DNA of 64,000 bases from positions 1 to 64,000 of the forward strand of contig JAGXFG010000059.1 of the NCBI GenBank assembly GCA_024637395.1, in the 5' to 3' direction. This DNA comes from Burkholderiaceae bacterium. Its GTDB lineage: Bacteria; Pseudomonadota; Gammaproteobacteria; Burkholderiales; Burkholderiaceae_E. The notes under the pieces are model-generated. The model had not been told where the DNA came from and did not search any database. It worked only from the letters and a program-made list of their open reading frames with translations. The position numbers and the translations under genes were made by a program. This document shows, piece after piece, positions 31,818 to 47,809 of the stretch; the first letter of the stretch is position 1; each line of letters opens with the position of its first letter.

Positions 31818-32285
31818 TCAGTACTTCACCTTGATCTTGTCCATCGCTTCCTTGGTGATGGCTGGTACATCGCCTTTGGCGTTCCAGCGATTCAAGTTCC
31901 AGGCACCCTCCCCGACCCACGCCTTGAAGAGAGCCAGATTCTTCTGGCGCTCTTCCTCGGAGGAACCCAGGCGCTTGTACATGTTGCCCGCCTTGCCACC
32001 AGCGTTTTTCCCATCGTCAAGCCTGCGCATCAGGGCGCCAGTGTCGGGCCAGCCAACGAAGAAAATCAGATCCGCATAGGTGTCCATTCTCGGCCCCTGG
32101 AGATCGGCCTCGAATTTCGCCTTGTTCTCGCTGAAGTCACCGAGATAGGGCGACTCAGCCCCATGACAGGTACCGCATTTCGCCTTGACCAGCGGCGCGA
32201 TATCTTTTCGGTAGGTCACATCGGCGGCGAAACCGGGAATCGAAATACCGAGCGCAACACCAGCCGCAATCACAGTCTTCAACAT
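31818..32285 (-). CDS. Periplasmic monohaem c-type cytochrome
   Basis: This is a 155-residue protein with a signal peptide (cleavage near residue 20-21, G-F-A-A-D). A single haem motif C-G-T-C-H lies at 37-41, preceded by Y-R-K-D-I-A-P-L-V-K-A-K as in many terminal-oxidase-like small cytochromes. The rest is helical and Lys-rich at the C-terminus. The distal ligand is not obvious. It follows the carboxymuconolactone-decarboxylase-family gene by 83 bp on the same strand. It could be a periplasmic electron shuttle for the haem-rich systems downstream; that link is positional only. Confidence 0.82.
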   Translation of the reverse strand: MLKTVIAAGVALGISIPGFAADVTYRKDIAPLVKAKCGTCHGAESPYLGDFSENKAKFEADLQGPRMDTYADLIFFVGWPDTGALMRRLDDGKNAGGKAGNMYKRLGSSEEERQKNLALFKAWVGEGAWNLNRWNAKGDVPAITKEAMDKIKVKY

Positions 32286-32844: not shown

Positions 32845-33723
32845 ATGAATTTCGCCGGCGTTTACCCTTATCTGGTCTCTCCCATCGCCAGCGACGGCAG
32901 CGTCGACGCTCCGGTTCTGACACGCCTGTGTGACGATCTGATCGCCGCGGGCGTCCACGGCCTGGTGCCGCTGGGTTCGACCGGCGAGTTTGCCTACCTG
33001 TCATGGCCGCAACGCCGCCGGGTGGTCGAGGTGGTAATCGCCGCGGCGCGCGGCCGGGTGCCGGTTATCGCCGGGGTCGCGGCCACCACCACCGCGGAGG
33101 CGGTGCGCCAGGCACAGGAACTGGCGCAGCTGGGCTGCGACGGCATTCTGGCGATTCTCGAAGCCTATTTCCCGCTCGACGACGACGCGATCCATTCCTA
33201 TTTCAGCGCCATCGCCGCGGCCACGCCGTTGCCGGTGGTGCTCTATACCAACCCCAATTTCCAGCGTGCCGATCTCTCGCTGCCGGTGATCGACCGGCTC
33301 AGCCGGATCGGCAACATCCGCGCCATCAAGGACGCATCGAACAATACCGGGCGGCTGCTCTCGATCATCAACCTGGTGGAGGGCCGGATCCAGGTCTGCG
33401 CCGCCTCGGCCCACATCCCGGCCTGCGTGATGCTGATCGGCGGGGTCGGCTGGATGGCCGGACCGGCTTGCCTGGTGCCGCGCCAGAGCGTGACGCTCTA
33501 TGAGCACTGCCGCGCCGGCCGCTGGGACGAAGCGATGGCCCTGCAAGCCCGGCTCTGGGCGCTGAACCAGGCCTTCGCGCGCCACAACCTGGCGGCCTGC
33601 ATCAAAGGTGGACTTATCATGCAGGGCTACCCGGTCGGCGAACCGCTGCCGCCGCAGGCACCTTTGTCCGCGCCGGGACAACTCGAGGTGCGCCAGGCGC
33701 TTGAAGCGGTTGGCGCGCTGTAG
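32845..33723 (+). CDS. Dihydrodipicolinate synthase (DapA) family aldolase
   Basis: This is a 292-residue TIM-barrel class I aldolase. It has G-S-T-G-E-F near 42-47 (substrate loop), Y-T-N-P near 132 (catalytic Tyr) and the Schiff-base Lys in A-I-K-D-A-S near 161. Genuine DapA is usually adjacent to lysine or nlpB-type genes. Here it begins a plus-strand run leading to the Ehr-type complex, so it more likely acts on another 2-oxo acid. The start at 32845 has G-A-G upstream; an upstream in-frame ATG would add a non-family extension. Confidence 0.85.
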
Positions 33724-33754
33724 CGCCGCACCAATTTTCTCCACGAGGCAAGGG

Positions 33755-34123
33755 ATGACCCGCCACATTCTCGACGAAGACCACATCCACCCGGCAATTC
33801 GTGAGCGCATCGCCAACCTCAACCGCGACATCGTCGAGGAAGTGCAGCAGGCGCTGGCCGCCCACAAGGTGGTAGTCGTGGGGATGAGGCAAAACCCCGT
33901 GGTCAAGAAGGCGCGCCAGGCGCTCGAAGCGCAGGGCATCGCCTTCCACTACCTGGAGTACGGCAGCTACCTCAACACCTGGCGCCGGCGCAATGCGCTC
34001 AAGATGTGGACCGGCTGGCCGACCTTGCCGATGGTGTTCGTCAAGGGTGTGCTGGTCGGTGGCGCGGCCGAACTCAATGCCCTGCTCGCCAGCGGCGATC
34101 TGATCCACATGATGCAGTCATGA
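33755..34123 (+). CDS. Cysteine-free glutaredoxin-fold protein
   Basis: This is a 122-residue protein. Its C-terminal two-thirds follow the monothiol glutaredoxin pattern: strand V-V-V-V-G near residue 42, helix K-K-A-R-Q-A-L-E, a W-x-x-W-P-T-L-P-M-V-F-V-K-G segment with the cis-Pro, then V-G-G-A-A-E-L. Where C-G-F-S or C-P-Y-C should be, the sequence is M-R-Q-N-P, and the protein has no cysteine at all. It cannot act as a thiol redox enzyme. The ATG at 33755 follows AAGGG. It lies 31 bp after the DapA-like gene and 66 bp before the membrane-complex genes. Confidence 0.8.
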   Translation: MTRHILDEDHIHPAIRERIANLNRDIVEEVQQALAAHKVVVVGMRQNPVVKKARQALEAQGIAFHYLEYGSYLNTWRRRNALKMWTGWPTLPMVFVKGVLVGGAAELNALLASGDLIHMMQS

Positions 34124-34189: not shown

Positions 34190-36187
34190 GTGCTTCACAT
34201 CGATTGGATGCTGTTGATCGTTGGCGGCTGGCTCGCACTGGGCCTTGCCGGCATCGCGGCGCCGCACAACACGCCGTTCGTAGCCCGCGTCCTTTTCCCC
34301 CTGGGCGCGGCGCTTGCTGGCCTGCTGGCGCTCTTCGCCGGCTTCGCGCTGTTCGACACCCCCGAGACCGCGGTGCTGGCGGTGGGCCTGCCAAACTTGC
34401 CGTTTCATCTGCGCCTCGACGCGCTCTCGGCCTTCTTCCTGCTGCTGATCGGCGCTGCCAGCGCCGGCATCTCGATCTTCGCCGCCGGCTATTTCCGCCA
34501 GGGTGAAGGCACCCCGCCGGGCCTGCTGTGCCTCGAGTACCACCTGTTCCTGGCCAGCATGGCCATGGTTGTGCTGGCCGACGACGCCTACGCGTTCATG
34601 GTGATGTGGGAGACGATGGCGCTGTCCTCGTTCTTCCTGGTCATCGCCAACCACCGCGCGGCCAGCATCCGCCAGGCCGGCTTCCTCTACCTGCTGGTGG
34701 CGCACATCGGCGCCATCGGGATCCTGTTGTCGTTTGCGATCCTGCGCGCCAACACCGGCGACTACACCTTCGCCAACATGCGCGGCCATTCGCTCGAGCC
34801 GTTCTGGGCCTCGGCGGCGTTCCTGCTGGCGGTGTTCGGCTTTGGCGCCAAGGCCGGGATCGTGCCGCTGCACGTCTGGCTTCCCGAAGCCCATCCTGCG
34901 GCGCCCTCGCCGGTGTCGGCGCTGATGAGCGGCGTGATGTTGAAGACCGCGATCTACGGCATCCTGCGGGTGAGCTTCGACCTGCTCTCGCAACAGATCT
35001 GGTGGTGGGGCGCGGTGCTGCTCGCCGTGGGGCTGATAACGGCGCTCTTCGGGGTGGTCTACAGCGCGGTTCAGACCGACATGAAACGGCTGCTGGCGTA
35101 CTCGTCAATCGAGAACATCGGGCTGATCTGCGTCGGGATCGGACTCGGCCTGCTGTTCAAGTCGTACGCGATGGGGGGGCTGGCGGCGCTCGCGCTCACC
35201 GCGGCTCTCTACCACGCCATCAGCCATGCCTTCTTCAAGAGTCTGCTGTTCCTGGGCACCGGTTCGGTGCTGCACGCCACCGGCGAGCGCAGCCTGGGCA
35301 AGCTGGGCGGCCTGTTGCGGCGGATGCCCTGGGTGGGCTGGCTGATGCTGATCGGCATGCTGGCCAGCTCCGGCCTGCCGCCGTTTTCCGGTTTCGTGGC
35401 CGAATGGCTGCTGCTGCAAAGTTTCCTGTTCACCACCGGACTGCCCAATTCCTTCCTCAACATGCTGGTGCCGGTGGTGGCAGCGGCGATCGCACTGGTC
35501 GCCGCGCTGGCCGCCTACGCGATGGTGAAGTTCTACGGCATCATTTTCCTGGGCCAGCACCGCGAACCCCATCTCGAGCAGGCCCACGACGCCTCGCTAC
35601 TGGAACGCAGCGGGCTGATCTGGCTGGGCGCTGGCTGCGTGCTGATGGGCCTGATGCCGGTGCCGGTGATCGAGGCCATCGACCGGGTCACCCAAGTGCT
35701 GGTCAAAACCGGCATCGCCACCACGGTGCGCGCGCACGGCTGGCTGGTGCTGGCCCCCACCGACGTGGCCCGGGCCAGCTACGCGCCGCTCTTGTTCCTG
35801 CTGCTGGTGCTCGGTTGCACGCTGCTGGCGTCGCTGATCGTGCGCCGGCTCTATCACGGCGGGATCCGCCGGGCACCGCCATGGGATTGCGGATTCCCGG
35901 GGCAGACGGCACGCATGCAGGACACCTCGGAAGGCTTCGGCCAGCCGATCCGGCAGATGTTCGAGCCGGTATTCAGGATGAGTCGCCAGCTGCCCTCGGC
36001 GGCCGACGACCACCCGGTCTACAAGGTGACGATCGATGATCACTTCTGGCACTGGCTCTACCTGCCGATCGCCACGGCGAGCCACTTCGTCGCCAGCCTG
36101 GTCGGCCGGCTGCAGCACGGTCGGATCGCGATCTACCTGCTCTACAGCTTCGTCACCCTGATCCTGCTCCTGATGGTGGTGATGTAA
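34190..36187 (+). CDS. hyfB: Hydrogenase-4-type membrane subunit B (antiporter-like, NuoL family)
   Basis: This is a 665-residue polytopic protein of the NuoL/MrpA/HyfB family. The W-L-P-E-A-H-P-A-A-P-S-P-V-S-A-L-M-S-G block near 226-244 and following Lys (M-L-K-T) are the ion-channel residues. L-A-Y-S-S-I-E-N-I-G near 302 and a discontinuous-helix region follow. The C-terminal extension (P-W-D-C-G-F near 563) is HyfB-like. The start is a GTG with AGGGA 7 bp upstream. It is the first of six genes encoding a complex-I-related membrane module; its stop overlaps the next start (TAATG). Confidence 0.9.
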   Translation: MLHIDWMLLIVGGWLALGLAGIAAPHNTPFVARVLFPLGAALAGLLALFAGFALFDTPETAVLAVGLPNLPFHLRLDALSAFFLLLIGAASAGISIFAAGYFRQGEGTPPGLLCLEYHLFLASMAMVVLADDAYAFMVMWETMALSSFFLVIANHRAASIRQAGFLYLLVAHIGAIGILLSFAILRANTGDYTFANMRGHSLEPFWASAAFLLAVFGFGAKAGIVPLHVWLPEAHPAAPSPVSALMSGVMLKTAIYGILRVSFDLLSQQIWWWGAVLLAVGLITALFGVVYSAVQTDMKRLLAYSSIENIGLICVGIGLGLLFKSYAMGGLAALALTAALYHAISHAFFKSLLFLGTGSVLHATGERSLGKLGGLLRRMPWVGWLMLIGMLASSGLPPFSGFVAEWLLLQSFLFTTGLPNSFLNMLVPVVAAAIALVAALAAYAMVKFYGIIFLGQHREPHLEQAHDASLLERSGLIWLGAGCVLMGLMPVPVIEAIDRVTQVLVKTGIATTVRAHGWLVLAPTDVARASYAPLLFLLLVLGCTLLASLIVRRLYHGGIRRAPPWDCGFPGQTARMQDTSEGFGQPIRQMFEPVFRMSRQLPSAADDHPVYKVTIDDHFWHWLYLPIATASHFVASLVGRLQHGRIAIYLLYSFVTLILLLMVVM

Positions 36188-37137
36188 TGGTCACGTTCGC
36201 CGGGGTCTTCTCGCAACTGCTCGAGTTGGCGTGCGCGCTCGCGTTCGCACCGTTGCTGCTGGGCTGGGTCAACCAGTGGCGGGCCTGGCTGCAGAATCGC
36301 ACCGGACCGGGCGTGCTCCAGCCCTATCGGGTGCTGCACAAGCTGTTCCAGAAGGAATCGGTGATCGCCTACCCGGCTACCAAGCTGTTCCGGGGCGCGC
36401 CCTACATCGTGTTTGGCTGCATGGCGCTGGTGAGCGCGATCGTCCCCAGCCTCTCGACCGATCTGGCGCTGGCCTCGGCCGCGGACGCCATCGCGCTGGT
36501 TGGGCTGTTCGCGCTGGCGCGGGTGTTCATTTCGCTGGCGGCGATGGATATCGGCACTGCGTTCGGCACGCTCGGCGCGCGCCGCGAGATGATGGTCGGC
36601 TTCCTGGCTGAACCGGCGCTGCTGATGGTGCTGTTCTCGGCCTCGCTGATCTCGCAATCGACTTCGCTGGCCACCATCGTCGGCCACATCGCCAACCAGC
36701 CCTTCGCGATCCACCCCAGCCTGGCGATCGCCGGGATTGCCTTCACCTTCGTGTCGCTGGCCGAGAACGCCCGGATCCCGGTCGACAATCCGGCCACGCA
36801 CCTCGAACTGACCATGATCCATGAGGCCCTGATCCTGGAATATTCCGGGCGGCACCTGGCGCTGATGGAGTGGGCCGCGGCGCTCAAGCTCTACGCCTAC
36901 TCCTGCATCGGCCTGGCGATCTTCTTCCCCTGGGGCGTGGCCTCCAGCGGCCGGGCGATCGACGTGGTGCTGGCGATTCCGGCGCTGGCGCTCAAGCTGG
37001 TACTGGGCGGCATCGGGCTGGCGGTGATCGAAACCATCAATGCCAAGATGCGGCTGTTCCGGATCCCGGAGTTTCTCGCGACTGCCTTCCTGCTGGCGGT
37101 GATCGCACTGCTCACCCACATCCTGCTGGGCAGTTGA
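36187..37137 (+). CDS. hyfC: Hydrogenase-4-type membrane subunit C (NuoH family)
   Basis: This is a 316-residue protein of the NuoH/HyfC/EchB family that links the soluble arm to the ion-pumping arm. It has the N-R-x-G-P-G-V-L-Q-P-Y-R-V-L-H-K-L motif near 37-53, G-A-R-R-E near 134-138, and the acidic loop R-I-P-V-D-N-P-A-T-H-L-E-L-T-M-I-H-E near 197-214. About eight helices are visible. It starts one base inside the hyfB stop. Confidence 0.92.
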   Translation: MVTFAGVFSQLLELACALAFAPLLLGWVNQWRAWLQNRTGPGVLQPYRVLHKLFQKESVIAYPATKLFRGAPYIVFGCMALVSAIVPSLSTDLALASAADAIALVGLFALARVFISLAAMDIGTAFGTLGARREMMVGFLAEPALLMVLFSASLISQSTSLATIVGHIANQPFAIHPSLAIAGIAFTFVSLAENARIPVDNPATHLELTMIHEALILEYSGRHLALMEWAAALKLYAYSCIGLAIFFPWGVASSGRAIDVVLAIPALALKLVLGGIGLAVIETINAKMRLFRIPEFLATAFLLAVIALLTHILLGS

Positions 37138-37138
37138 G

Positions 37139-37798
37139 ATGAACGACCTGCTGTCCCAAAGCATCAATTTCTTCGCCTCAATGCTGCTGGTGCTGGCCTT
37201 CGCGATGATCGCCCAGCGCCGGGTACTGACGCTGATTCGCCTCTTCACGCTCCAGGGTGCGGCACTGGTGGCGGCAACCGCGGTGGTCGCGCACCTGACC
37301 GGCGAACACGAGATGTATTACTCGGCGGCGATCACCTTCGTCGTCAAGGTCGTGGTCATCCCGATCATCCTGACCCGGCTCATCAACCGCCTGAACGTGC
37401 GCTGGGACGTGGAAACGCTGTTCAACATTCCCACCACGATGCTGATCGGCATCCTGCTGGTGATCTTCGCCTTCAACCTGGCCGCTCCGGTTGCGAGCCT
37501 GTCGAAGTCGCTCGCGCGCGGCACGCTGGGAATCGCCATGGCCTGCGTGCTGCTCTCATTCCTGATGATGATCGTGCGCTCCAAGGCCGTGCCGCAGGTG
37601 ATCGGCTTCCTGTCGATGGAAAACGGCCTGTTCTTCGCCGCCACCGCGGCCACCGGCGGCATGCCGATGGTCGTCGAGCTGGGCATCGCCTTCGACGTGC
37701 TGGTCGGGATCCTGATTCTCGGCGTGTTCATGTTCCAGATTCGCGAGCAGTTCGAGAGCCTGGACATCCGCCACCTCGAGAACCTCAAGGAAAAGTGA
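37139..37798 (+). CDS. hyfE: Hydrogenase-4-type membrane subunit E
   Basis: This is a 219-residue membrane protein with about six helices. The C-terminal half, V-P-Q-V-I-G-F-L-S-M-E-N-G-L-F-F near 156-171, resembles NuoK/MnhC-type subunits, the usual HyfE arrangement. It begins one base after the hyfC stop and ends just before the hyfF start, keeping the B-C-E-F order of formate hydrogenlyase-type clusters. Confidence 0.88.
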   Translation: MNDLLSQSINFFASMLLVLAFAMIAQRRVLTLIRLFTLQGAALVAATAVVAHLTGEHEMYYSAAITFVVKVVVIPIILTRLINRLNVRWDVETLFNIPTTMLIGILLVIFAFNLAAPVASLSKSLARGTLGIAMACVLLSFLMMIVRSKAVPQVIGFLSMENGLFFAATAATGGMPMVVELGIAFDVLVGILILGVFMFQIREQFESLDIRHLENLKEK

Positions 37799-37800
37799 GC

Positions 37801-39255
37801 ATGGAGACCCTCCTGATGCTGGTGCTGGCCATGCCGATAGCGGGCGGGGTCACGCTGGGTCTGGTCGGCCACCTGCCGCGGGCGCGCGACGTCAACGCGG
37901 TGTTCAGCCTGGGCACGCTGCTCGCCGCCATCGCGCTGACCAGCATGGTGATCGAGAACGGCCCGTTCCTGGCGGTTGGCCAATGGTTCTTCGTCGACCC
38001 GCTCAACGTCTTCCTGGTGACGCTCACCGCTTTCGTGGGCTTCACCACGTCGCTCTTCTCGCGGCCCTACATGCAGGTCGAGGTCGACCGGGGCAAGATG
38101 ACTCCACGGCGCATGCGGCTCTACCACAGCATGTATCAGTTCTTCAACGGCATGATGCTGCTGGCGCTCACCACCAACAACCTGGGCATCATGTGGGTCG
38201 CGATGGAAGCCGCCACGCTCACCACCGTGCTGCTGGTCTCGGTATACCGCACCGCCGCCAGCCTGGAGGCGGCCTGGAAGTACTTCATCCTCTGCGGCGT
38301 GGGCATCGCGCAGGCGCTCTTTGGCACGATCGTGGTCTATCTCGCGGCCGAAAACGCCATCGGCCCCGCCGATGCCCTGACCTGGACCAAGCTGGCCGAG
38401 GCCCGCAACCTGCTCGACCCCAACATCCTGGCGATTGCCTTTGCCTTCCTGCTGCTGGGCTACGGCACCAAGGTCGGCCTGGTGCCGGTGCACAACTGGC
38501 TTCCCGACGCCCACGCCGAGGGGCCGACGCCAATTTCGGCGGTGCTCTCCGGCTTGCTGCTCAACGTCGCGCTCTATGCGGTGCTGCGCTGCAAGGTGCT
38601 CGCCGACGGCGCGATGCAAAACGGCCTGCCCGGCCGGATGATGGTGGGCCTGGGACTGCTTAGCGTGCTGGTCGCGGCGTTCTTCCGGTTCCGCTAGAAA
38701 GACGCCAAGCGCATGTTCGCCTACTCGTCGATCGAGCACATGGGCCTGATGACCTTCGCCTTTGGCATTGGCGGCACGATCGCCAACTTCGCCGGCCTGC
38801 TCCACATGACGGTCCACGCGCTGGTCAAGTCGGGGATCTTCTTCGCCGTTGGCCACGCCGCGCAGAAGGCCGGGACCCAGACCATGGCCGACATTCGCGG
38901 CCTGGTGACGACCAGCCCGACCGTCGGCTGGGGACTGATGCTCGGTTCGCTGGCGATCCTCGGGATGCCGCCGTTCGGCGTCTTCGCCAGCGAGTTCCTG
39001 ATCCTCACCTCGGCGATGGAGTCAGCCCCCTGGACCACCCCCTTCCTGTTGCTGGGCCTGGGAGTAGCCTTTGCGGCGATCTTCAGCCGGGTCCTGCCGA
39101 TGGTCTTCGGCGAGCCTTCGTCGAGCCGGCTGCCGCACCCGCCGGCACTGGTCCCGGTGTTCATTCACCTCGGCCTGGGATTGATGCTCGGGCTCTACAT
39201 TCCGCCCTACCTCAACGGCTGGTACGAAGCGGCCGCGCGGATGATCGGAGGCTGA
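37801..39255 (+). pseudogene. hyfF: Hydrogenase-4-type membrane subunit F interrupted by an in-frame amber codon
   Basis: This is a second antiporter-like NuoN/HyfF subunit. The first part (37801-38697, 298 residues) contains W-L-P-D-A-H-A-E-G-P-T-P-I-S-A-V-L near 237-253. It ends at TAG (38695-38697) within F-R-F-R-stop-K-D-A-K-R-M-F-A-Y-S-S-I-E-H-M-G. The same frame stays open to 39255, giving about 485 codons, the normal HyfF length. Relatives have Gln (CAG) or another residue there. One C-to-T change explains it. The ATG at 37801 is preceded by AAGGAAA; an in-frame GTG is 6 bp upstream. The break lies in the loop before a key transmembrane segment, so the truncated product is unlikely to work. 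Confidence 0.85.
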
Positions 39256-39258
39256 GCG

Positions 39259-40794
39259 ATGCGGATTCCCGGGCTCGATATCGAATTCCAGCGGCTCGAC
39301 GCGCCGCTGCCGATCCATTTCGCGCGCGTGGCGCCCCCGGACTGGTCGGCGCTGGCGCACGCGCTGGCCGCCAACCAGGGCCAGATCGTGAGCCTGTGGG
39401 GCAGCGACCATGGCGCCGGGGGCAAGACGGTCAGCGCGGCCTACCAGAGCGCCGAGGGCCTGGTGGTCGCCGAACTCGCGCTCGAGCCCGCTGCCCGTTA
39501 CCCCGATATCGCCAGCCACTTCCCGGCGGCGATCAGGATGCAGCGCGCTGCCCGTGACCTGGTCGGCGTTGCCGCCGAGGGCGCGACCGATCAGCGCCCA
39601 TGGCTGCGCCACGGTGCCTGGCCAGCCGATTACCTACCGCTCGCGGCCGAAAACACCGGTGCCGAGAACTTTACCCAGGAGAGCGAGGACTACGACTTCG
39701 TGCGGGTCCAGGGTGATGGCGTGCACGAGATTCCAGTCGGTCCGGTGCACGCCGGGATCATCGAACCGGGGCATTTCCGCTTTTCGGTGGTCGGCGAGAA
39801 AGTGCTCCGGCTCGAGGAGCGCCTGGGCTACACCCACAAGGGGATCGAGCGCCGCTTCGCGGGACTAGATATCGCCACCGGCGCGCGGCTGGCCGGCCGG
39901 GTCAGCGGCGACAGCACGGTGGCCTATGCCTGGGGCTATGCGATGGCCGCCGAGTCGCTGGCCGGGGTCCGGATCCCCGATCGGGCGATCTGGCTGCGCG
40001 CGCTGCTGCTCGAGCGTGAGCGCATCGCCAATCATCTCGGCGATCTCGGTGCGCTCGGCAACGATGCGGCGTTCGGCTTCGCGCTGACCCAGTTCTCACT
40101 GCTGCGCGAGGAGTGGCAGCGCAACAGCCAGGCCGCTTTCGGGCATCGCCTGCTGATGGATCAGGTCGTTCCCGGCGGCGTCGCGCGTGATCTCGACGAG
40201 CCGGCGATCGCGGCCCAGCTCGAGCAGATCCGCAGCTTGCGCGAGATGATCGCCCGGCTGCGGCGAATCTTCGACGAGCACGCCGGCATGCAGGATCGCT
40301 TCGTCACCACCGGCCGCGTCGACCAGGAGCTCGCCCTGCGGCTCGGGCTGACCGGCTTCGCGCTGCGCGCCAGCGGCATTGCCCGCGACCTGCGCAGCGA
40401 TTTCCCGTTCGCCCCCTACCCGCAGGTCGACTTCAAGTGCATGACCCGCACCAATGGCGACGTCGGGGCTCGCGTCAACCAGCGCTTCGACGAGATTTCG
40501 GAGTCGCTGCGCCTGCTGTTGCGGCTGCTGCGCGGCCTGCCGCCGGGAGCCATTGCAGCGCCGCTGGCGGCCACCGGCCCCGGCCGCGGCTTCGGGTGGG
40601 TCGAGGGCTGGCGCGGTCCGGTCATGGTGGCGCTCGAAACCGGCGGCGAGGGCTCGATCACCCGCTGCCATTGCCACGACCCATCGTGGCAGAACTGGCC
40701 GGTGCTCGAACACGCGATCATCGGCAACATCGTGGCCGACTTTCCGCTGATCAACAAATCGTTCAACCTCAGCTATTCAGGGCAGGATCTGTGA
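39259..40794 (+). CDS. HyfG-like (NuoC-NuoD-type) large subunit lacking the [NiFe] cysteines
   Basis: This is a 511-residue protein. A NuoC-like domain (about 1-125) is fused to a NuoD/hydrogenase-large-subunit domain (about 145-511), as in HycE/HyfG. P-V-G-P-V-H-A-G near 160 and G-I-E-R-R-F near 195 are conserved. The N-terminal C-x2-C position reads R-V-S-G-D-S-T (Ser216, Ser219), and the C-terminal one reads S-F-N-L-S-Y-S-G (Ser505, Gly508). Only three Cys exist in total (394, 470, 472). No Ni-Fe site can form. This places it with energy-converting hydrogenase-related (Ehr) complexes. Confidence 0.88.
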   Translation: MRIPGLDIEFQRLDAPLPIHFARVAPPDWSALAHALAANQGQIVSLWGSDHGAGGKTVSAAYQSAEGLVVAELALEPAARYPDIASHFPAAIRMQRAARDLVGVAAEGATDQRPWLRHGAWPADYLPLAAENTGAENFTQESEDYDFVRVQGDGVHEIPVGPVHAGIIEPGHFRFSVVGEKVLRLEERLGYTHKGIERRFAGLDIATGARLAGRVSGDSTVAYAWGYAMAAESLAGVRIPDRAIWLRALLLERERIANHLGDLGALGNDAAFGFALTQFSLLREEWQRNSQAAFGHRLLMDQVVPGGVARDLDEPAIAAQLEQIRSLREMIARLRRIFDEHAGMQDRFVTTGRVDQELALRLGLTGFALRASGIARDLRSDFPFAPYPQVDFKCMTRTNGDVGARVNQRFDEISESLRLLLRLLRGLPPGAIAAPLAATGPGRGFGWVEGWRGPVMVALETGGEGSITRCHCHDPSWQNWPVLEHAIIGNIVADFPLINKSFNLSYSGQDL

Positions 40795-41324
40795 TGTGGC
40801 AGGTGCTCAAACACATCGCGCGCACCGGCTTCCCGACCGAATCGGCGCCTGAGCCCGCGACCGAATGGCGCACCGCCGAGGCACAGGAAATCCAGCAGCG
40901 CATCCTGCAGGTGCTGGGGCGTGCCCTGGCCATCAGGCAGGTCGATGCCGGTTCGTGCAACGGTTGCGAGCTGGAAATCAATGCGCTCAGCAATCCACGC
41001 TACAACATCGAGGGGCTGGGCATCCGCTTCGTGGCCAGTCCGCGCCACGCCGACATGCTGCTGGTGACCGGACCGGTGAGCCGCCACATGGAAGTGGCGC
41101 TGCGCCGGACCTACGATGCCACCCCTGCGCCCAAGCTGGTGGTCGCGGTCGGGGACTGTGGCTGCAACGGCGGGGTCTTCGGCACCAGCTACGCCTCGCT
41201 GGGCGCGGTGGCCAATGTGCTGCCGGTGGACGTCGCGATTCCCGGATGTCCGCCGACGCCGGTCGACCTGATGCGCGGCATCCTGGCCGCGCTCCAGATG
41301 AAGACGCCCGAACCGGGAAGTTGA
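40794..41324 (+). CDS. HyfI-like (NuoB-type) iron-sulfur small subunit
   Basis: This is a 176-residue protein. It keeps all ligands of the proximal [4Fe-4S] cluster: Cys55 and Cys58 in S-C-N-G-C-E, Cys122 or Cys124 in D-C-G-C-N-G-G, and Cys152 in P-G-C-P-P. It should therefore accept or donate one electron next to the large subunit. The ATG at 40794 overlaps the large-subunit stop. No ferredoxin-type subunit (HyfA/HyfH-like), formate dehydrogenase or maturation gene follows; the cluster ends here. Confidence 0.9.
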   Translation: MWQVLKHIARTGFPTESAPEPATEWRTAEAQEIQQRILQVLGRALAIRQVDAGSCNGCELEINALSNPRYNIEGLGIRFVASPRHADMLLVTGPVSRHMEVALRRTYDATPAPKLVVAVGDCGCNGGVFGTSYASLGAVANVLPVDVAIPGCPPTPVDLMRGILAALQMKTPEPGS

Positions 41325-41378: not shown

Positions 41379-43463
41379 CTAGAAGCTGTAGCGCAGCGAC
41401 GCCCGCAGGACGTGGACCCGGTAGTTCGGGGCGGTTTCGCCCAGGGTCAACACGTTCTCGATGGTGCCGGGCAAGACGCCGTCCAGCAGCCAGCTCTTGC
41501 TGGTGTAGCGCTGGTAGCCGTAATCGCCCCGCAGCGTGACGTTGTCCTTCAGGCGATAGACCGCGTAGAAGCGCAGGCTGTCGAGATTGGCGGTCAGCGT
41601 CGGGAAAGAAGGTGCACTGATGCCGGTGAATACCGCAACGTCACCCTTGGAGCGTGAGAAGCTGAGGTCGGCGCCGACGTTGAACTTGTCCTCGATCACC
41701 ACGTGCTTGACGCCGACGCCGATGAAATCAACGGTGTCGCGGTTGTTGGCGGTCCAGTCGGGAGTCGAGAACGACGAACTGCCGGCCTGGGTCGAGCGGA
41801 TCTGCTGGCGGTTGACGAAGAAGGTGAACCGGGTCTCGTCGGACATCGCCCACGAGGCATCGCCGCTCAAGGTCAGTTCGCGCCCGTCGGTAAGCCCGAT
41901 GGTCGAATCCTGGTAGTCGTCACGCGCTGCGTCCAGCCCCAGGCCAAAGTGCAGTTCGTCGCTCACCGCGACGTCCGCGCGCAGCCCCAGCGTGTCACGC
42001 TGGCGATTGGCGAGGTTGTACTTGCGCATCAGGGGGTTCTCCGGCGGAATCACTTCCGCCAGCGCCTGGTAACCGCTGTTGCGCCGTTCGCCATGGGCGG
42101 CCTTGACACTCAGTTCGACGTCTTCGATCGCGCCCCTGCTGCTCAGTCGCGCCCAAACGGTCTGGTCACGGGTCCGGTCGACTTCCTGGTAGGTACGCCT
42201 GGTCGTGTCATGGTCGTAACCGGCCGCAGCCCCGGTGTCTTCGTCGATGCGATAGTCGGCGCGCAGCTTGAACTTGTCCGAGGTGAAGCTGAAGGGCGTG
42301 TTGCTGCGCGGGACACCAGTGAACACGTCGGTGATCAGCGACGGATAGAGCAGGCTCGCCGTCTGGTTGTCACGATCGTTGTGGGTATAGGCAGCGTTGA
42401 CGCGCAGATCGTCGTTGACCTGGGTGTTCATGCGCAACGACGCATTGACGGTGGCGACACGGCCGTCGAGTGACGCGGCCGGCAGGCTATCCAACGCCAG
42501 GGCGGCGTTGGTGGTCTGCGCCTGGTAAGCCTGGTTCTGCGTCATCCGGCCGACTGCCAGGTCGGCGTTCAGGCGCGTCCTGGCGCTATAGCGATAGCCG
42601 ACCGCGGCCGAGAGCTGATGGAACTGGCTGTCAGGTGGCAGCCCCAGGCTGCCGGAGTCAGCCCCCGCGATCACCGGGGTGAACGGGTTCGCCCAGGTCA
42701 GCGAAGGATTGCCGTTGCGGAACTGGGAGCCGTAGTAACCGAACCTGAGCTGCCAGCGACTGCCGGCATAGGAGGCGAAGGCATCGACCTGATCGGTGGT
42801 GTAATCGATCGGCTCGAGGAACTGCGCCGACTGCACGAATAACGAGCCGGCGCCGCGCTTGGTCCCGTCCTTGGTCTCGTGGCGTACGTTGACCGAATAT
42901 TCCCATTGCGGCGATGCCAGCAGCAAGGCGCCGACGTCAAGCCGCTTGCGTTCGGTGCCGATGGTCACCGGCACCAGCGTCGTGCCCAGCGGCATCAGCG
43001 CGGTGTCCGCCGCCGGATAGCCGGCCGGCAAGGTCAGGACTCCGGTGCCCGAACCAAGAAACGGGGTGCTCGCGCTGTCGGACGAGAGCGCCGGCAGCTG
43101 GTTATAGCGCAGCCACATCCGGTAACTGCGGGCGTTGCCGGCTTCGATCGCCAGCGAACGGGTGTCGATTCCGAGGTCGGCGGCCTTGAGGTTCCAGTAG
43201 GCGCCATTCTCGCCGTCACTGCGCACGTTCGCGCCGCCGATCAGGAACCCGCCCTTGTCGCCCAGGCCATTGAACTGGCCGAACTTCGCGGACGAGTCCG
43301 ACACAACGCCCACGCCGACATCGACCGAACCGGTGCGCCCCTCAAGGAACTCGCAGGATTCGCACTTCCACTCGGAGGTATCGACCGCAGGGCCTGCCGC
43401 AGCCACGACAGTTGGCAGGGCAGCAATCAGGCTGATCAACAATAGCGGTTTCGAGGTCTTCAT
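41379..43463 (-). CDS. MtrB/PioB-family outer-membrane beta-barrel protein
   Basis: This is a 694-residue protein with a signal peptide (cleavage near 22) followed by the diagnostic MtrB C-x2-C pair (Cys34, Cys37, in K-C-E-S-C). The remainder is alternating beta-strand sequence ending L-R-Y-S-F, the aromatic C-terminus of outer-membrane barrels. MtrB forms a sheath around a decahaem MtrA/DmsE cytochrome and docks an outer-surface MtrC/OmcA cytochrome. All three partner types are encoded in this operon. It is the last gene of the run. Confidence 0.9.
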   Translation of the reverse strand: MKTSKPLLLISLIAALPTVVAAAGPAVDTSEWKCESCEFLEGRTGSVDVGVGVVSDSSAKFGQFNGLGDKGGFLIGGANVRSDGENGAYWNLKAADLGIDTRSLAIEAGNARSYRMWLRYNQLPALSSDSASTPFLGSGTGVLTLPAGYPAADTALMPLGTTLVPVTIGTERKRLDVGALLLASPQWEYSVNVRHETKDGTKRGAGSLFVQSAQFLEPIDYTTDQVDAFASYAGSRWQLRFGYYGSQFRNGNPSLTWANPFTPVIAGADSGSLGLPPDSQFHQLSAAVGYRYSARTRLNADLAVGRMTQNQAYQAQTTNAALALDSLPAASLDGRVATVNASLRMNTQVNDDLRVNAAYTHNDRDNQTASLLYPSLITDVFTGVPRSNTPFSFTSDKFKLRADYRIDEDTGAAAGYDHDTTRRTYQEVDRTRDQTVWARLSSRGAIEDVELSVKAAHGERRNSGYQALAEVIPPENPLMRKYNLANRQRDTLGLRADVAVSDELHFGLGLDAARDDYQDSTIGLTDGRELTLSGDASWAMSDETRFTFFVNRQQIRSTQAGSSSFSTPDWTANNRDTVDFIGVGVKHVVIEDKFNVGADLSFSRSKGDVAVFTGISAPSFPTLTANLDSLRFYAVYRLKDNVTLRGDYGYQRYTSKSWLLDGVLPGTIENVLTLGETAPNYRVHVLRASLRYSF

Positions 43464-43558
43464 GTTCCGGTCCCGTTCTGACTTTGCTTCTTCACTCGTT
43501 CATGCTCGGAATTGCCGCCAACCAGCGCCGTGCCAATGCACGGCGCAACCGCGACAGG

Positions 43559-44538
43559 CTAGCGCATCAGTTTCGCGCCCGCTGGGTGATTCGACCCGTG
43601 GATCCGGCTGTGGCAGTTGATGCAGCCGCCCGCCAGCAGGAAGCCCTGGCCCCCGGCAGTACCGCCCGGCAGCGCTGCACCGGTGTGGGCAATCGCCGGA
43701 TGACCAGCTGCGGCGTGGCACTGCTGGCACAACAGCGGCGAATTCTTCTTGAGCAGCGCCGGATTGGTCGAGCCGTGGGGCGAGTGGCAGTTGGTGCAGT
43801 CCTCGGCCACTGGCTGGTGTTCCCACAGGAACGGGCCGCGCTTCTCGGCGTGGCAGGTGTAGCAGACCTGGTTGACCGTCGGCTTGACCAGCAACTTCTC
43901 CACGTTCGAGCCGTGGACGTTGTGACAATCACTGCAGACGACCTTGCCGGCCAGAATCGGATGCGACCAGGGCTTGCGGATCTCCGCCATCTGCTTCTTG
44001 TGGCACTTGCCGCAAACGTCCACCTGGGTCGCGGCCGAAAGCACCGGGTCATTGCCGGAATGGACGCTGTGACAGGTCGCGCACGCCAGTTGGTTGACTT
44101 CGTGGGTGCTGCCCTGCCAGGCGATCCGCGCCTTGTTCTCATGACACGTGAGGCAGGGTGCGTTCAGCTCTGCGGGAGCACGGGTGGCCGGCGGGTTGAA
44201 GGCGATGATCTTGTCGCGCTTGCCCTTCTTGGTCTTGACGTGATCGGCGCCAGGGCCGTGGCAGGCCTCGCACTGCAACTGGCCCTTCCAAAGGGCGTGC
44301 GCGCGTCATCAGGCCGGGCGTGACGCGACAGGAAGATCGCGCCCTCCTTGGTGGTGTGGTCAGCGTCGTGACATCCCAGGCAGGTATCGGCACCCTGTGG
44401 GCTGTAACCCCCGTTCACCTCTGCTGCGGTCGCCGCCTCATCCTTGGCCTTGTCCTGCGCCGCGACGGCGCCCGAGAACGCCAGCCCTGCCAGCAACAAC
44501 AGCGCCGCGCCGAGTGATTTCGTGTTCTTCATCGTCAT
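43559..44538 (-). pseudogene. Decahaem periplasmic cytochrome (DmsE/MtrA type), single-base frameshift
   Basis: The start at 44538 gives a signal peptide (A-V-A-A-Q near 25-28) and haem motif 1, C-L-G-C-H, at 53-57. The reading frame then derails. The second reading frame (43559-44278) continues with nine C-x2-C-H motifs (C-E-A-C-H to C-I-N-C-H). Joined, they give ten haems and about 325 residues, the DmsE/MtrA length. The switch falls in 44283-44295 (CCCTTCCAAAGGG), where one missing base would restore T-P-F-G-K-G-Q-L-Q-C. It is the periplasmic/transmembrane wire for the MtrB-type barrel; as read, it would not be made. Confidence 0.87.
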
Positions 44539-44543
44539 CTGCC

Positions 44544-46811
44544 CTATTTGACCCCGTGCATTACCTTGACGTCATAGACCCGGCCAACGCCGTGGCACAC
44601 CGAACAGGTCTCGATCTGGGTGCTCGCCACCGCGAGCGTCTGGTCGAACGCGCCACCGTTGAGAATCATGTGGTACTTGGCGGTCGCGCCGTCATGGCAC
44701 GAGGCGCAGACCGCTGCCGTCGATGTTGTCTTCAGGTCATCGGCAGCGTCGTCCGGGATCGTGCCGGTGCTGGTGGTGGTGGTCAGCAGACCGCTTGACC
44801 AGGTGCTGACCCACTGGCCGCCAAGCTGGTAGGAAGTGGCGGTGTGGCAGGCCGTGCAGTTGGCCAGATTGCCGGGGAAGACGACATCGGCGAACGACAC
44901 CGCCCGGCCACCAAAGCCATAAACCGTTATTCCAGTCTCGCGGAAGCCACCCTTGGCAGCCTCGCCAGCGTGGATGGCGTGGATCATGGTGCGGAAATTG
45001 ATCGACTCCTCGAGCTTGCCATCGACGCCGCCGGTGAGCACGCCGGCCGTCGTCGGGCGCTGGGCCGCGTCGGTGGCGTTGGGGTTGTGGCAGACCACGC
45101 AGACCCCAGGCTCATCAGTGCGATTGCCGCCGTGCAGGCTCAGCGTGTCGTGGCAAACGGCGCACTTGGCAAAGTCGACCACAGTGCGCCGCGCCACCAC
45201 GTTGCCCGCAATCGCGAAGTCCTTGAACGCGCTCTTGACGGCGAGGCGATCGGTGAAAGTGCCGCCTGTAGTCACGTCACCCATCACCCGGCCGTCCATC
45301 GCCACCCGCAGCGAGGCCGCCTGGTTGGGCAGCATTGCCGGGACCGCCACCGGTGAGGTCACCGTGTAGGTTCCGGCAGCCGCGCCGGCCATTGCCGTGG
45401 TGAGCGCATTGATGCTCACCGGCTGGCCGAAGTTGGCGCCGCTCGCGTGGTTGCCGAAGTCAGTCGTGCTCCAGGCAATCTTGATTCCCAATGACGCCCC
45501 GGCCGAGGTGAAGCCGGCAGCGCTGGCGAGGTCATACGGCGCACCGCCATTGGTGGGATCGGTGACCGAGAAGGTAACGACCGGGAACTGGCCGACCGCC
45601 GTCGCGGTGGCGCTGATCACGTTGAACTGGTATTTCGCCGCGGCCGCCTTCAACCGCCCCGGGAAATTGTGGGCGATCGCGATGTCCTTGGCGTCGGTGA
45701 AGCGGCCGGCACCGTGGCACAGCGCACAGCGACTGTCGTCGCCCTGGACACCGCCCGTGTGGGCGATCGTCTGGTAGGGCTTGGTGGCATCCGGGGTGGT
45801 GCCAAAGTAGACGTTGTCGTGGCACGACCCGCAGGCCGCCACACTGGGAGTGGTCTTCCAGTGGTCACCGAGCGCCGTGAAGTTGCTCGCGCCCGCTGTG
45901 CCGTCATGACAACGGGTGCAGTTGCGCACGTCCTGCGTGAACACCACCTTCGAAAAGTCAGCGTCGCCGATCATGTATGGCGTACCGGCGATCACGCTTG
46001 GCAGTTGCACACCGCCGTTGTTGTAGTGAATCCGGTGGATCATCGCCTTCAGATCCACCGTGGTGTTGGCGCTGCCCGCCGTGCCCGCTACCCACGAGCC
46101 GCGGTTGTGGCAGGTCGCGCAGAGCCGCACGTCGACGCGCGTGCCGTGGGCGCTCAGCTGAGTGTGGCAGCTGTTGCAGGTGGAATTGGCCACCACGTCG
46201 GGCTGGGCCGCGGCCCCGCCGGCGGGTACGAAGTCGTAGATGCCCGAGGCCTTCGGATAGCCCGAATTGCCCTGCTGAATCGTGACCCGGTGGGTCAGGG
46301 ACGGCGCGAAACTGATGTCGAGCGCGTTGCCGTCGGCATCGGTGCACGGCGGCGGGCAGACATTGGCGGCGGCACTCTTGATGTCGGTGGCAAAGGTATA
46401 GGTGTAGGTGCCGTCACCGTGGTTGTCGAGCGTCCCGAAGGGATAGCCATCACGCAGCCGCTCCTGGCTGCCCTGTACCGCGCCGGCGTTGGCGCGATTG
46501 ATGTAGTTTTGCCAGTGTCCGCCGGTACCGTCGGTGGCGGGCATCCACTTGGCGATGTTGAAGCGCAGGTCGGCGGCGGCCAGAGCCGTGAAAGCAGCGC
46601 CGGCCTGGGTCTTGACCGTGAAATTGACCGCCGGGGTGTTCACCAGGCCGACGTCCGTGACCGTAATCTTCAGCTCGGTCAGCGCCGCCTCGGCCGGTGG
46701 CGTGGTGCCGCCAGCGCCCGAACCTCCGCCGCCGCATCCGGCCAGTGCCAGCGCCAATGCGCCCGCCGCCACGATCCTGCCCCACATTCCGGACACCCGA
46801 TTCCGACTCAT
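44544..46811 (-). CDS. OmcA/MtrC-family decahaem outer-surface lipoprotein cytochrome (copy 1)
   Basis: This is a 755-residue protein. The signal peptide ends in the lipobox L-A-G-C (Cys26) and is followed by a Gly-rich linker. Ten C-x2-C-H haem motifs are present: C-N-S-C-H, C-A-T-C-H, C-T-R-C-H, C-G-S-C-H, C-A-L-C-H, then after a beta-rich domain C-A-V-C-H, C-V-V-C-H, C-T-A-C-H, C-A-S-C-H and C-S-V-C-H. The five-plus-five arrangement with flanking beta-domains is that of MtrC/OmcA. It likely passes electrons between the barrel complex and extracellular acceptors or donors. It starts at the ATG at 46811. Confidence 0.92.
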   Translation of the reverse strand: MSRNRVSGMWGRIVAAGALALALAGCGGGGSGAGGTTPPAEAALTELKITVTDVGLVNTPAVNFTVKTQAGAAFTALAAADLRFNIAKWMPATDGTGGHWQNYINRANAGAVQGSQERLRDGYPFGTLDNHGDGTYTYTFATDIKSAAANVCPPPCTDADGNALDISFAPSLTHRVTIQQGNSGYPKASGIYDFVPAGGAAAQPDVVANSTCNSCHTQLSAHGTRVDVRLCATCHNRGSWVAGTAGSANTTVDLKAMIHRIHYNNGGVQLPSVIAGTPYMIGDADFSKVVFTQDVRNCTRCHDGTAGASNFTALGDHWKTTPSVAACGSCHDNVYFGTTPDATKPYQTIAHTGGVQGDDSRCALCHGAGRFTDAKDIAIAHNFPGRLKAAAAKYQFNVISATATAVGQFPVVTFSVTDPTNGGAPYDLASAAGFTSAGASLGIKIAWSTTDFGNHASGANFGQPVSINALTTAMAGAAAGTYTVTSPVAVPAMLPNQAASLRVAMDGRVMGDVTTGGTFTDRLAVKSAFKDFAIAGNVVARRTVVDFAKCAVCHDTLSLHGGNRTDEPGVCVVCHNPNATDAAQRPTTAGVLTGGVDGKLEESINFRTMIHAIHAGEAAKGGFRETGITVYGFGGRAVSFADVVFPGNLANCTACHTATSYQLGGQWVSTWSSGLLTTTTSTGTIPDDAADDLKTTSTAAVCASCHDGATAKYHMILNGGAFDQTLAVASTQIETCSVCHGVGRVYDVKVMHGVK

Positions 46812-46904
46812 CACATCCCCACTTTCGCGGGCGCGTAGCCCCCGAACAAGATAAACCTGTGCCACCCGCGCGGGCGACACGCCTGTTGCGATCGAGACAA
46901 GGCC

Positions 46905-47303
46905 TTACTTCGGCGCCTTGTCACCCAAGAGTTCCTTGAGATCCTTCTTCGTGAACCTGACCGTCACCCTATTCTTGATCCGGCCGTAGAGTTCGGCCGA
47001 TATGATTTCGCGGGAAACCAGTTGCGCCTTGCTGCCGAAGGGGCGGTTGGCCATGATTCGTCCGGCCAGCGCCGTGGTAATTCCGGGGACGCTCTTCAAC
47101 TCGGTGCGCGAGGCATGGTTGATGTCCACCAGATTTCCTGCGGGCGCCATCAGGTTCCGGTGACCCTTCTGCGCCTGAGGAACAGCCGGAGCAGACGGGG
47201 CCGGCTCAGCCTGTGTCTGCGCCTGCGCCATGCCAACCGACACGGCCAGTACCACTGCGACAAGTCCAGATTCAACGATGTTGCGGGCGATGCTGCGATT
47301 CAC
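46905..47303 (-). CDS. Exported helix-hairpin-helix (ComEA-like) protein
   Basis: This is a 132-residue protein with a signal peptide (A-Q-A cleavage near 28) and a Pro/Ala-rich linker. The helix-hairpin-helix core V-D-I-N-H-A-S-R-T-E-L-K-S-V-P-G-I-T lies near 59-76, followed by a second helix pair. The GTG start has AGGAG about 7 bp upstream. ComEA-type proteins bind DNA in the periplasm; an HhH fold can also be structural. It sits inside the cytochrome operon, 93 bp before the OmcA-like gene, which is unusual. Confidence 0.8.
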   Translation of the reverse strand: MNRSIARNIVESGLVAVVLAVSVGMAQAQTQAEPAPSAPAVPQAQKGHRNLMAPAGNLVDINHASRTELKSVPGITTALAGRIMANRPFGSKAQLVSREIISAELYGRIKNRVTVRFTKKDLKELLGDKAPK

Positions 47304-47381
47304 GAAAACTCTCCTGTTCTTGCCAGTGCCGCAGGTTTAAGACATCTTATATTTTGACACATTGACGGGGAGACACACGTT

Positions 47382-47416
47382 AAAAAAAACAACCCGGACG
47401 ATTGCGCGTCCGGGTT
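47382..47416 (-). terminator. Rho-independent terminator downstream of the cytochrome relic
   Basis: On the minus strand a perfect 10-bp stem (AACCCGGACG at 47391-47400 / CGTCCGGGTT at 47407-47416, loop of 6) is followed by eight T residues (A run at 47382-47389 on the plus strand). It terminates transcription arriving from the relic and marks the break before the HhH gene. Confidence 0.85.
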
Positions 47417-47488
47417 GCGTCTCTACTGGCCTGCCGGAGGACACGCCGTAGCGCATCCCCGAGCAGACTGGTCATTCAACTCAACACG

Positions 47489-47710
47489 TTACTGCCCGTG
47501 CATCACCTTGATGTCGGCGATCTTGCCCGGACCGTGGCACAGCAGGCAGGATTCGGGACCCTTAGCCTTGGCAGCCACACGCGTCTCGTAGAACGAACCA
47601 CCTCGCGACTTGATGTGGCTGATCGCCAGCGCATCGTCGTGGCCGGCCGTGCAAGCAGCCGTCATTGGCGAGCTCACCAGGTTAGTGTCGGCGCCTACCG
47701 GGCCAGCCGG
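47489..47710 (-). pseudogene. C-terminal relic of a third OmcA/MtrC-family cytochrome
   Basis: About 73 codons remain, opening directly after a TAA and resembling the last part of copy 2: T-N-L-V-S-S-P near the start, a decayed haem motif C-T-A-G-H (second Cys replaced by Gly), S-H-I-K, then an intact C-L-L-C-H-G-P-G-K-I-A-D-I-K-V-M-H end. The full-length copies end the same way (C-H-G-A-G-K-I-A-D-V). A Met is present 12 residues in, but no ribosome site fits. It keeps its own terminator (47382-47416). It reads as a deletion remnant. Confidence 0.75.
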
Positions 47711-47719
47711 TTAATCGGA

Positions 47720-47753
47720 CAAAAAGAAACCCCGGATGCTTGCGCACCCGGGG
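47720..47753 (-). terminator. Terminator hairpin with T-rich tail after OmcA-like copy 2
   Basis: CCCCGG (47730-47735) pairs with CCGGGG (47748-47753) and TGC (47737-47739) with GCA (47744-47746). On the minus strand it is followed by TTTCTTTTT (plus-strand 47721-47729). This is the end of the 47810-50455 transcript. Confidence 0.8.
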
Positions 47754-47772
47754 TCGGTGATGGCTTGCTCAG

Positions 47773-47798
47773 CCGGGGCGCTTACCGAAGCGCCCCGG
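47773..47798 (-). terminator. Second, stronger hairpin directly after OmcA-like copy 2
   Basis: A perfect 11-bp GC-rich stem (CCGGGGCGCTT at 47773-47783 / AAGCGCCCCGG at 47788-47798) has a 4-nt loop and no T run. It lies 11 bp after the stop codon and 20 bp before the T-tailed hairpin. Two hairpins in series suggest strict termination or 3'-end protection. Confidence 0.65.
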
Positions 47799-47809
47799 AG
47801 AGGTACTTG

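What the first reader, a model, noticed from the sequence alone, without database searches (positions are those of the whole stretch)
34190..41324. Hydrogenase-4-like membrane complex whose [NiFe] ligands are all replaced
Seen: the HyfG-like protein has Ser216/Ser219 at the first C-x2-C and Ser505/Gly508 at the second, and only three Cys overall. The HyfI-like partner keeps its [4Fe-4S] Cys, and the ion-pump subunits B, C, E and F are all encoded. No ferredoxin-type subunit, formate dehydrogenase or maturation gene is in the cluster. Known: Ehr-type complexes of this kind exist, and their electron donors and acceptors are largely unknown. Inference: this is an ion-translocating oxidoreductase of unknown partner.
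Basis: partly seen in the sequence, partly recalled or inferred. Interest (0 to 1): 0.82.

Follow-up and report, generated by a model that had tools for sequence, protein, structure and literature searches.

The report
Hydrogenase-like ion pump without nickel-iron site
This is a six-part bacterial membrane machine that looks like a hydrogen-making enzyme but has lost the parts that hold its metals; it belongs to a widespread, already described but functionally unexplained family, and some relatives sit beside genes for carbon dioxide uptake, which gives a lead on what it does.

Summary
The cluster is real: hyfB-C-E-F-G-I, 34190-41324 (+). The large subunit has Ser216/Ser219 and Ser505/Gly508 where [NiFe] enzymes have four Cys, and Cys only at 394, 470, 472. 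One correction: hyfF is not intact in this assembly. Codon 301 is TAG (38695-38697), where all 160 relatives covering it have Gln or Arg. The Ser-type large subunits form one clade outside HycE/HyfG. Pump residues and HyfI [4Fe-4S] cysteines are conserved, and the old metal site has become a conserved non-cysteine pocket. The genome has no HypD or NiFeSe_Hases match, but has a formate dehydrogenase elsewhere. This is a known kind (Ehr, "hyfBCEFGI"), already called non-hydrogenase in print (PMC7735108, PMC10284858; passages seen). Best reading: ion-translocating oxidoreductase, partner untested. Lead: in the window's order, 11 of 42 Ehr loci have a SulP transporter or gamma-carbonic-anhydrase-like gene upstream on the same strand, against 0 of 30 control loci, and only in RuBisCO genomes. 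It is not general: 0 of 40 loci outside the order, and the window's own genome shows no RuBisCO.

The parts
34190..36187 (+). hyfB-like: large antiporter-like (NuoL/M type) membrane subunit, 665 aa
   Evidence: NCBIfam hydrogenase 4 subunit B 914.5 bits, cutoff 667; Proton_antipo_M
36187..37137 (+). hyfC-like: NuoH-type membrane subunit, 316 aa
   Evidence: Pfam NADHdh 116.1 bits, cutoff 27
37139..37798 (+). hyfE-like: membrane subunit, 219 aa
   Evidence: NCBIfam hydrogenase 4 membrane subunit 91.2 bits, below its cutoff of 136; no Pfam match; homologues in the same place in relatives
37795..39255 (+). hyfF-like: second antiporter-like subunit, 486 codons, interrupted by TAG
   Evidence: both halves match hydrogenase 4 subunit F end to end; frame read
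38695..38697 (+). in-frame TAG, codon 301 of hyfF
   Evidence: Q or R in 160 of 160 relatives covering it
39259..40794 (+). hyfG-like large subunit, NuoC-type domain fused to a NuoD/HycE-type domain, 511 aa
   Evidence: Complex1_49kDa and Complex1_30kDa; best solved relative HycE, 7z0s_E
39904..39915 (+). first former [NiFe] motif, residues 216-219 S-G-D-S instead of C-x2-C
40771..40782 (+). second former [NiFe] motif, residues 505-508 S-Y-S-G instead of C-x2-C
40791..41324 (+). hyfI-like small subunit (NuoB type) with a [4Fe-4S] cysteine set, 177 aa
   Evidence: Oxidored_q6; cysteines kept in relatives

Best explanation
A NiFe-free relative of hydrogenase-4 (Ehr class): a membrane complex that couples electron transfer to H+ (or Na+) movement. 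SHOWN from sequence: the six-subunit core, one [4Fe-4S] cysteine set in HyfI, conserved charged residues in HyfB, HyfF and HyfC at the places used for ion pumping in complex I, and a conserved Asp/Tyr/Ser pocket in place of the metal site. INFERRED: a soluble low-potential carrier (ferredoxin, flavodoxin or an unfused dehydrogenase) docks directly on HyfI, since the complex has no ferredoxin-type subunit; the pocket beside the cluster handles an organic partner, most likely the membrane quinone; ion movement is driven by, or drives, that transfer. In this assembly the hyfF stop would truncate one of the two antiporter-like subunits; I take it as very recent or an error.
For: Homology of all six subunits. 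AlphaFold model of HyfG (pLDDT 89.1, pTM 0.91) matches HycE in 7z0s best, then E. coli complex I. Among alignments covering each site: HyfI Cys56 165 of 165, Cys59 165 of 165, Cys123 164 of 164, Cys153 163 of 163; HyfB Lys221 141 of 141; HyfF Lys226 158 of 158; HyfG Asp218 168 of 168, Tyr506 168 of 168. dN/dS 0.04-0.19 in the genus. Co-occurrence with RuBisCO, NifD, MtrB and SoxB in 150 genomes of the order, lifestyles in which uphill electron transfer is needed.
Against: No activity data. The NuoD quinone ligands recalled from complex I (T. thermophilus His38, Tyr87) align with Ile168 and Gly217, so a quinone site of the known kind is not supported. No partner is encoded beside the unit. With one genome per family the MtrB and SoxB associations are not significant (p 0.18, 0.09). 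The hyfF stop, if real, would argue against function in this strain.
Confidence: 0.5

Rival explanations
1. Inorganic-carbon module: the complex energises bicarbonate uptake or vectorial CO2 hydration together with a SulP transporter and a carbonic anhydrase, in the way complex-I-like NDH-1 does in cyanobacteria (recalled).
For: In 42 Ehr loci of the order, SulP in 9 and a gamma-CA-like (hexapeptide) gene in 6, 11 loci together, each upstream on the same strand; CsoSCA-like carbonic anhydrase downstream in 3; 0 of 30 CcoN control loci (p 0.002). All 11 in RuBisCO genomes (11 of 28 against 0 of 14, p 0.007). RuBisCO beside the unit in L033 and L079. An A. caldus hyf cluster lies beside a beta-carbonic anhydrase (PMC3826726, passages).
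Against: 0 of 40 loci outside the order. 31 of 42 loci in the order lack it. The window's locus lacks it, and its genome has no RuBisCO match at 1e-60. Adjacency is not function.
Confidence: 0.18
2. Part of an extracellular electron transfer chain with the neighbouring Mtr conduit.
For: Convergent Mtr cluster kept in two same-genus genomes. MtrB and Ehr co-occur in 12 of 16 MtrB genomes (OR 9.6), also within RuBisCO-positive (OR 10.4, p 0.025) and -negative (OR 8.4, p 0.014) genomes.
Against: Opposite strands, so not one operon. No MtrA or MtrB hit in the 42 Ehr loci of the order outside the window's genus, nor in the 40 loci outside the order. One genome per family: p 0.18.
Confidence: 0.08
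3. Dead or dying gene cluster in this strain.
For: In-frame TAG in hyfF and a frameshift in mtrA nearby.
Against: No relaxed constraint behind the stop and dN/dS 0.04-0.19 for all six genes. Same-genus copies are intact. Two single-base oddities in one MAG-like assembly are what errors look like.
Confidence: 0.1
4. A true formate hydrogenlyase / hydrogenase-4.
For: Subunit families are named hydrogenase 4; a formate dehydrogenase alpha subunit over the cutoff exists elsewhere in the genome.
Against: All four ligands missing, no HyfA or HyfH seen beside the unit, no HypD match in the genome, and placement outside HycE/HyfG.
Confidence: 0.02

Closest known systems
Ehr (energy-converting hydrogenase-related) complexes and the published six-gene hyfBCEFGI clusters (Cupriavidus, Nitrospira, vent Epsilonproteobacteria, Acidithiobacillus)
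   Same: Same six genes; for Nitrospira and A. ferrooxidans the large subunit is stated to lack CxxC or to be classed non-hydrogenase (PMC10284858, PMC7735108; passages)
   Different: hyfF interrupted in this assembly; convergent Mtr genes; no SulP or carbonic anhydrase beside it. I did not align the published proteins themselves
E. coli formate hydrogenlyase (HycB-G) and hydrogenase-4 (HyfA-J)
   Same: Core subunits and large-subunit fold
   Different: No [NiFe] ligands, no ferredoxin-type subunits HyfA/HyfH, no HyfD, no C-terminal extension behind the second motif
Respiratory complex I
   Same: Homologous core (Pfam families NADHdh, Proton_antipo_M, Complex1_49kDa, Complex1_30kDa, Oxidored_q6)
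   Different: No NADH module or NuoI in the cluster; NuoD quinone ligands not conserved (roles recalled). The genome has a separate NuoD
MBS, membrane-bound sulfane sulfur reductase of Pyrococcus (6u8y)
   Same: A hydrogenase-like complex that is not a hydrogenase; large subunits homologous
   Different: Falls outside, below Mbh, in the trees

Membership tests
Ehr (energy-converting hydrogenase-related complex) | Group-4-hydrogenase-like large subunit without the Ni-Fe coordinating residues | tested here: met
   definition from passages of PMC6349859 and PMC10284858
Ehr (energy-converting hydrogenase-related complex) | Antiporter-like membrane subunits | tested here: met
   (hyfF in two pieces)
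Ehr (energy-converting hydrogenase-related complex) | Coupled redox reaction and ion translocation | not testable with these tools
   needs biochemistry
[NiFe] group 4 hydrogenase / formate hydrogenlyase | Two C-x2-C motifs in the large subunit | tested here: not met
[NiFe] group 4 hydrogenase / formate hydrogenlyase | Hyp maturation machinery in the genome | tested here: not met
   HypD: no match in G000, 95.5% complete; other Hyp proteins not searched
[NiFe] group 4 hydrogenase / formate hydrogenlyase | Phylogenetic placement with HycE/HyfG | tested here: not met
Respiratory complex I | NuoD His and Tyr quinone ligands (recalled) | tested here: not met
   aligned with Ile168 and Gly217; Ile168 in 167 of 167, Gly217 in 165 of 168 covered
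CO2-uptake complexes of the NDH-1MS or DAB type | Dedicated CO2-hydrating subunit (CupA/CupB or DabA; recalled) | not tested
   CupA and DabA were not searched for; carbonic-anhydrase-like genes lie beside some relatives only

The most novel reading that the evidence does not exclude
In betaproteobacterial autotrophs the NiFe-free Hyf complex is part of an unrecognised inorganic-carbon uptake machine (SulP, carbonic anhydrase and a redox-driven complex-I-like pump), a non-cyanobacterial counterpart of NDH-1-driven CO2 uptake; the window's copy is the same engine used without the carbon parts.
Probability: 0.15. Interest if true: 0.75.

Novelty: new member of a known kind. Interest (0 to 1): 0.38.

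Why it matters
Such clusters are annotated as hydrogenase-4 or formate hydrogenlyase in several published genomes (PMC3958643, PMC5596200, PMC2864759; passages), which misleads predictions of H2 metabolism. The conserved replacement of both C-x2-C motifs gives a simple sequence test, and the SulP / carbonic anhydrase / RuBisCO neighbourhood in one order gives a directly testable physiological role for a family whose reaction is unknown.

Tried and rejected
Formate hydrogenlyase: rejected on ligands, subunits, HypD and tree. Mtr partnership: linkage seen only in the window's genus. Carbon-uptake link: taken outside the order and not reproduced there (0 of 40); 7 of those 40 stretches are shorter than 10 kb and others end near the unit, and my queries were betaproteobacterial, so divergent transporters could be missed. 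The same limits of flank apply to some of the 42.

Neighbour tallies: my script cut the upstream list at 100 and 93 of these were scanned; 108 of 151 downstream genes were scanned. Only Sulfate_transp/STAS recurred as an upstream transporter (Sulfate_transp 6 of 93); spermine-synthase-like methyltransferases, methionyl-tRNA synthetase and others recurred too. Two of the 46 genomes hit were dropped from the co-occurrence counts: G040 carries C-G-I-C, G165 only because of its similar score. From (56 genomes hit) 40 loci were fetched; left out were 6 in-order genomes, 8 hits of 295-326 bits taken to be hydrogenases by score only, a fragment (G310) and G230. Of the 44 Ehr genomes of the order, the window's own locus and G159 (contig edge) are not among the 42; second copies were not fetched. 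In L034 the gene upstream of the gamma-CA-like one is not SulP; L034 counts for gamma-CA only. RuBisCO matches of about 1e-60 to 1e-70 were treated as form IV and not counted. In one search, HyfB and HyfF alignments under 34% identity were dropped (148 and 161 kept; 169 loci searched). The A. ferrooxidans hyf cluster (AFE2149-54, PMC2621215) would touch its cbb5 operon (AFE_2155-2158, PMC6458275) only if both papers use one tag series; not checked. PMC11540253 (C. necator fitness) has no 'hyf'. RNA, promoter, repeat, PADLOC and PHROGs tools were not used.
Full report
What is there. Six co-directional genes, 34190-41324, match hydrogenase-4 / complex I subunits B, C, E, F, G and I (E only below its NCBIfam cutoff). 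HyfG (511 aa) has Ser216, Ser219, Ser505 and Gly508 at the positions of the four [NiFe] cysteines and three Cys in all. It ends three residues after position 508, without the C-terminal extension seen in E. coli HycE and HyfG. HyfI keeps the [4Fe-4S] cysteines.

A correction. The hyfF frame has TAG at 38695-38697. In both same-genus relatives the codon is CAG; in 160 of 160 relatives covering it the residue is Gln (130) or Arg (30). Read as written, HyfF would lose codons 301-486, with the conserved Lys345. The part behind the stop shows no relaxed constraint (window-only codon changes: 10 synonymous, 1 nonsynonymous; in front of it 24 and 5). mtrA, 5.6 kb away, has a frameshift near 44285, while a same-genus copy is one open frame. 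I take the stop as an assembly error or a very recent lesion.

Conservation. Against up to 169 loci (named and unnamed sets may overlap): Asp218 in 168 of 168 covered, Gly217 165 of 168, position 216 Ser 151 / Cys 10 / Ala 7, position 219 Ser 143 / Thr 15 / Ala 8 / Cys 2, Ser505 153 with Ala 11 and Asn 4, Tyr506 168 of 168, Gly508 163 with Ala 3, Asp510 165 of 165. In a separate set of 97 large subunits from the loci then held, 96 are of this type: 9 keep one of the four Cys, none keeps two or more, one lacks the C-terminus; the 97th (L067_b) has all four. The metal site was thus replaced by a conserved non-cysteine site. Charged residues of HyfB, HyfF and HyfC and the HyfI cysteines are nearly invariant (their pump role is recalled from complex I). 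In the genus, dN/dS is 0.04-0.19 over the six genes.

Placement. In trees with E. coli HycE and HyfG, a four-Cys hydrogenase of a relative (L020), Mbh, Mbs and NuoD, the Ser-type proteins form one clade (FastTree 0.996; UFBoot 100 with 34 sequences). The four-Cys protein L067_b, encoded directly upstream of a Ser-type cluster in a groundwater betaproteobacterial MAG, is their sister (0.93 / UFBoot 97). The grouping of L020 with HycE/HyfG is weak (UFBoot 78). The AlphaFold model (pLDDT 89.1, pTM 0.91) matches HycE in 7z0s best (TMq 0.91), then E. coli complex I; residues 509-511 have pLDDT under 50.

Genome. G000 (95.5% complete) gives no HypD and no NiFeSe_Hases match, a formate dehydrogenase alpha over the cutoff on another contig, a separate NuoD and no RuBisCO match at 1e-60. 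Downstream and convergent lie MtrB, MtrA (frameshifted), OmcA/MtrC and a second MtrC-like gene; upstream lie a glutaredoxin-like gene and DHDPS, CMD and PccH cytochrome genes. The Hyf-Mtr neighbourhood is kept in two of the three other same-genus genomes searched; the third shows no such large subunit.

Distribution. A capped scan gave 583 confirmed relatives, the best 80 kept: beta- and gammaproteobacteria above all, with Bradyrhizobium, Mesorhizobium, Azospirillum, Mariprofundus, Nitrospirae and acidobacterial MAGs. Most loci that span the unit read B-C-E-F-G-I; outside the order 36 of 40 do, the rest being cut or missing one gene in my screen. In the window's order 44 of 150 genomes have it (46 hits less 2). 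Co-occurrence: RuBisCO I/II 28 of 55 (OR 5.1, p 1.6e-5), MtrB 12 of 16 (OR 9.6, p 8e-5), NifD 15 of 21 (OR 8.6, p 2e-5), SoxB 32 of 73 (OR 4.2, p 2e-4), CcoN 36 of 115 (OR 1.5, p 0.4). With one genome per family (50 genomes, chosen by handle order): NifD p 0.003, RuBisCO p 0.02, SoxB p 0.09, CcoN p 0.10 (OR 4.1), MtrB p 0.18. So these are lifestyle correlations only crudely controlled for kinship.

Neighbourhood lead. In 42 Ehr loci of the order, SulP was found in 9 and a gamma-CA-like gene in 6 (11 loci together), all within 3 kb upstream on the same strand, and a CsoSCA-like carbonic anhydrase downstream in 3. Pfam supports SulP and CsoSCA_cat on the query loci; for the gamma-CA-like gene it gives only hexapeptide repeats, so that label is recalled. 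None of 30 CcoN loci from Ehr genomes has any of these (p 0.002). All 11 are RuBisCO genomes (11 of 28 against 0 of 14, p 0.007). L033 reads SulP - hyfBCEFGI - CsoSCA-like - LysR-type regulator - RuBisCO, and L079 (Thiomonas MAG) hyfBCEFGI - RuBisCO. In the named set 7 of 80 loci, many cut by contig ends, had SulP, gamma-CA or RuBisCO, and the carriers fall in several places of the tree. Outside the order 0 of 40 loci show it. It is a lineage-restricted association with autotrophy and does not explain the window's own copy.

Literature (passages seen, not whole papers). PMC2864759 lists hyfBCEFGI in C. metallidurans and strain H16 and finds a role in lithotrophic growth very unlikely. PMC7735108 classes the A. 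ferrooxidans hyfBCEFGI large subunit as non-hydrogenase and found no group 4 subunits in H2-grown cells. PMC10284858 says Nitrospira Ehr lack CxxC and that their function is unknown. PMC6349859 describes Ehr and proposes a formate dehydrogenase partner; PMC7894505 reports more of a Geobacter Ehr with formate. PMC3958643 and PMC5596200 call hyfBCEFGI a putative hydrogenase-4. PMC3826726 notes an A. caldus hyf cluster beside a beta-carbonic anhydrase and proposes a pH/CO2 role through H2 evolution. PMC10880623, a review of carbon-uptake toolkits, has none of the terms Hyf, hydrogenase, NDH-1, NuoL or complex I in its main text. My ten paper searches brought up no description of a SulP-hyfBCEFGI linkage; the library is open-access only and the listings were capped.

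Mechanism. Shown: core anatomy, one cluster motif, conserved charged membrane residues, a conserved ligand-free pocket. Inferred: electron exchange between a soluble carrier docked on HyfI and a small organic partner, probably quinone, in the pocket, coupled to ion movement. The weak point is that the complex I quinone residues are not conserved.

Noticed in passing
window 41379-50482 (-): Metal-reduction/oxidation type extracellular electron transfer cluster: MtrB/PioB porin, MtrA-like multihaem cytochrome, OmcA/MtrC, a helix-hairpin-helix protein and a second MtrC-like cytochrome; mostly kept in two same-genus genomes.
   Followed up: partly
window about 44285 (-): mtrA is split by a frameshift in this assembly (frames 44164-44538 and 43559-44278) while a same-genus copy is a single open frame.
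   Followed up: partly
window 33608-34123 (+): Glutaredoxin-like gene ending 67 bases before hyfB, kept in the two same-genus genomes (Pfam Glutaredoxin seen for the L026 copy).
   Followed up: no
window 31818-32285 (-): PccH-family cytochrome c close upstream, also present in L025.
   Followed up: no
L067 2280-4389 and 4849-12197: Tandem arrangement: a hyf cluster with a four-Cys large subunit directly upstream of a Ser-type cluster; the four-Cys protein is sister to the whole Ser-type clade.
   Followed up: partly
L053 4822-12072 and 12388-19518; G003 (L025 and L037): Two different Ser-type clusters in one genome, in tandem in L053; a second, more distant subtype.
   Followed up: no
L033 10310-11371 (-), L078 12301-13359 (+): Stand-alone proteins with a weak CsoSCA catalytic-domain match (carboxysome shell carbonic anhydrase) beside hyfBCEFGI.
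   Followed up: partly
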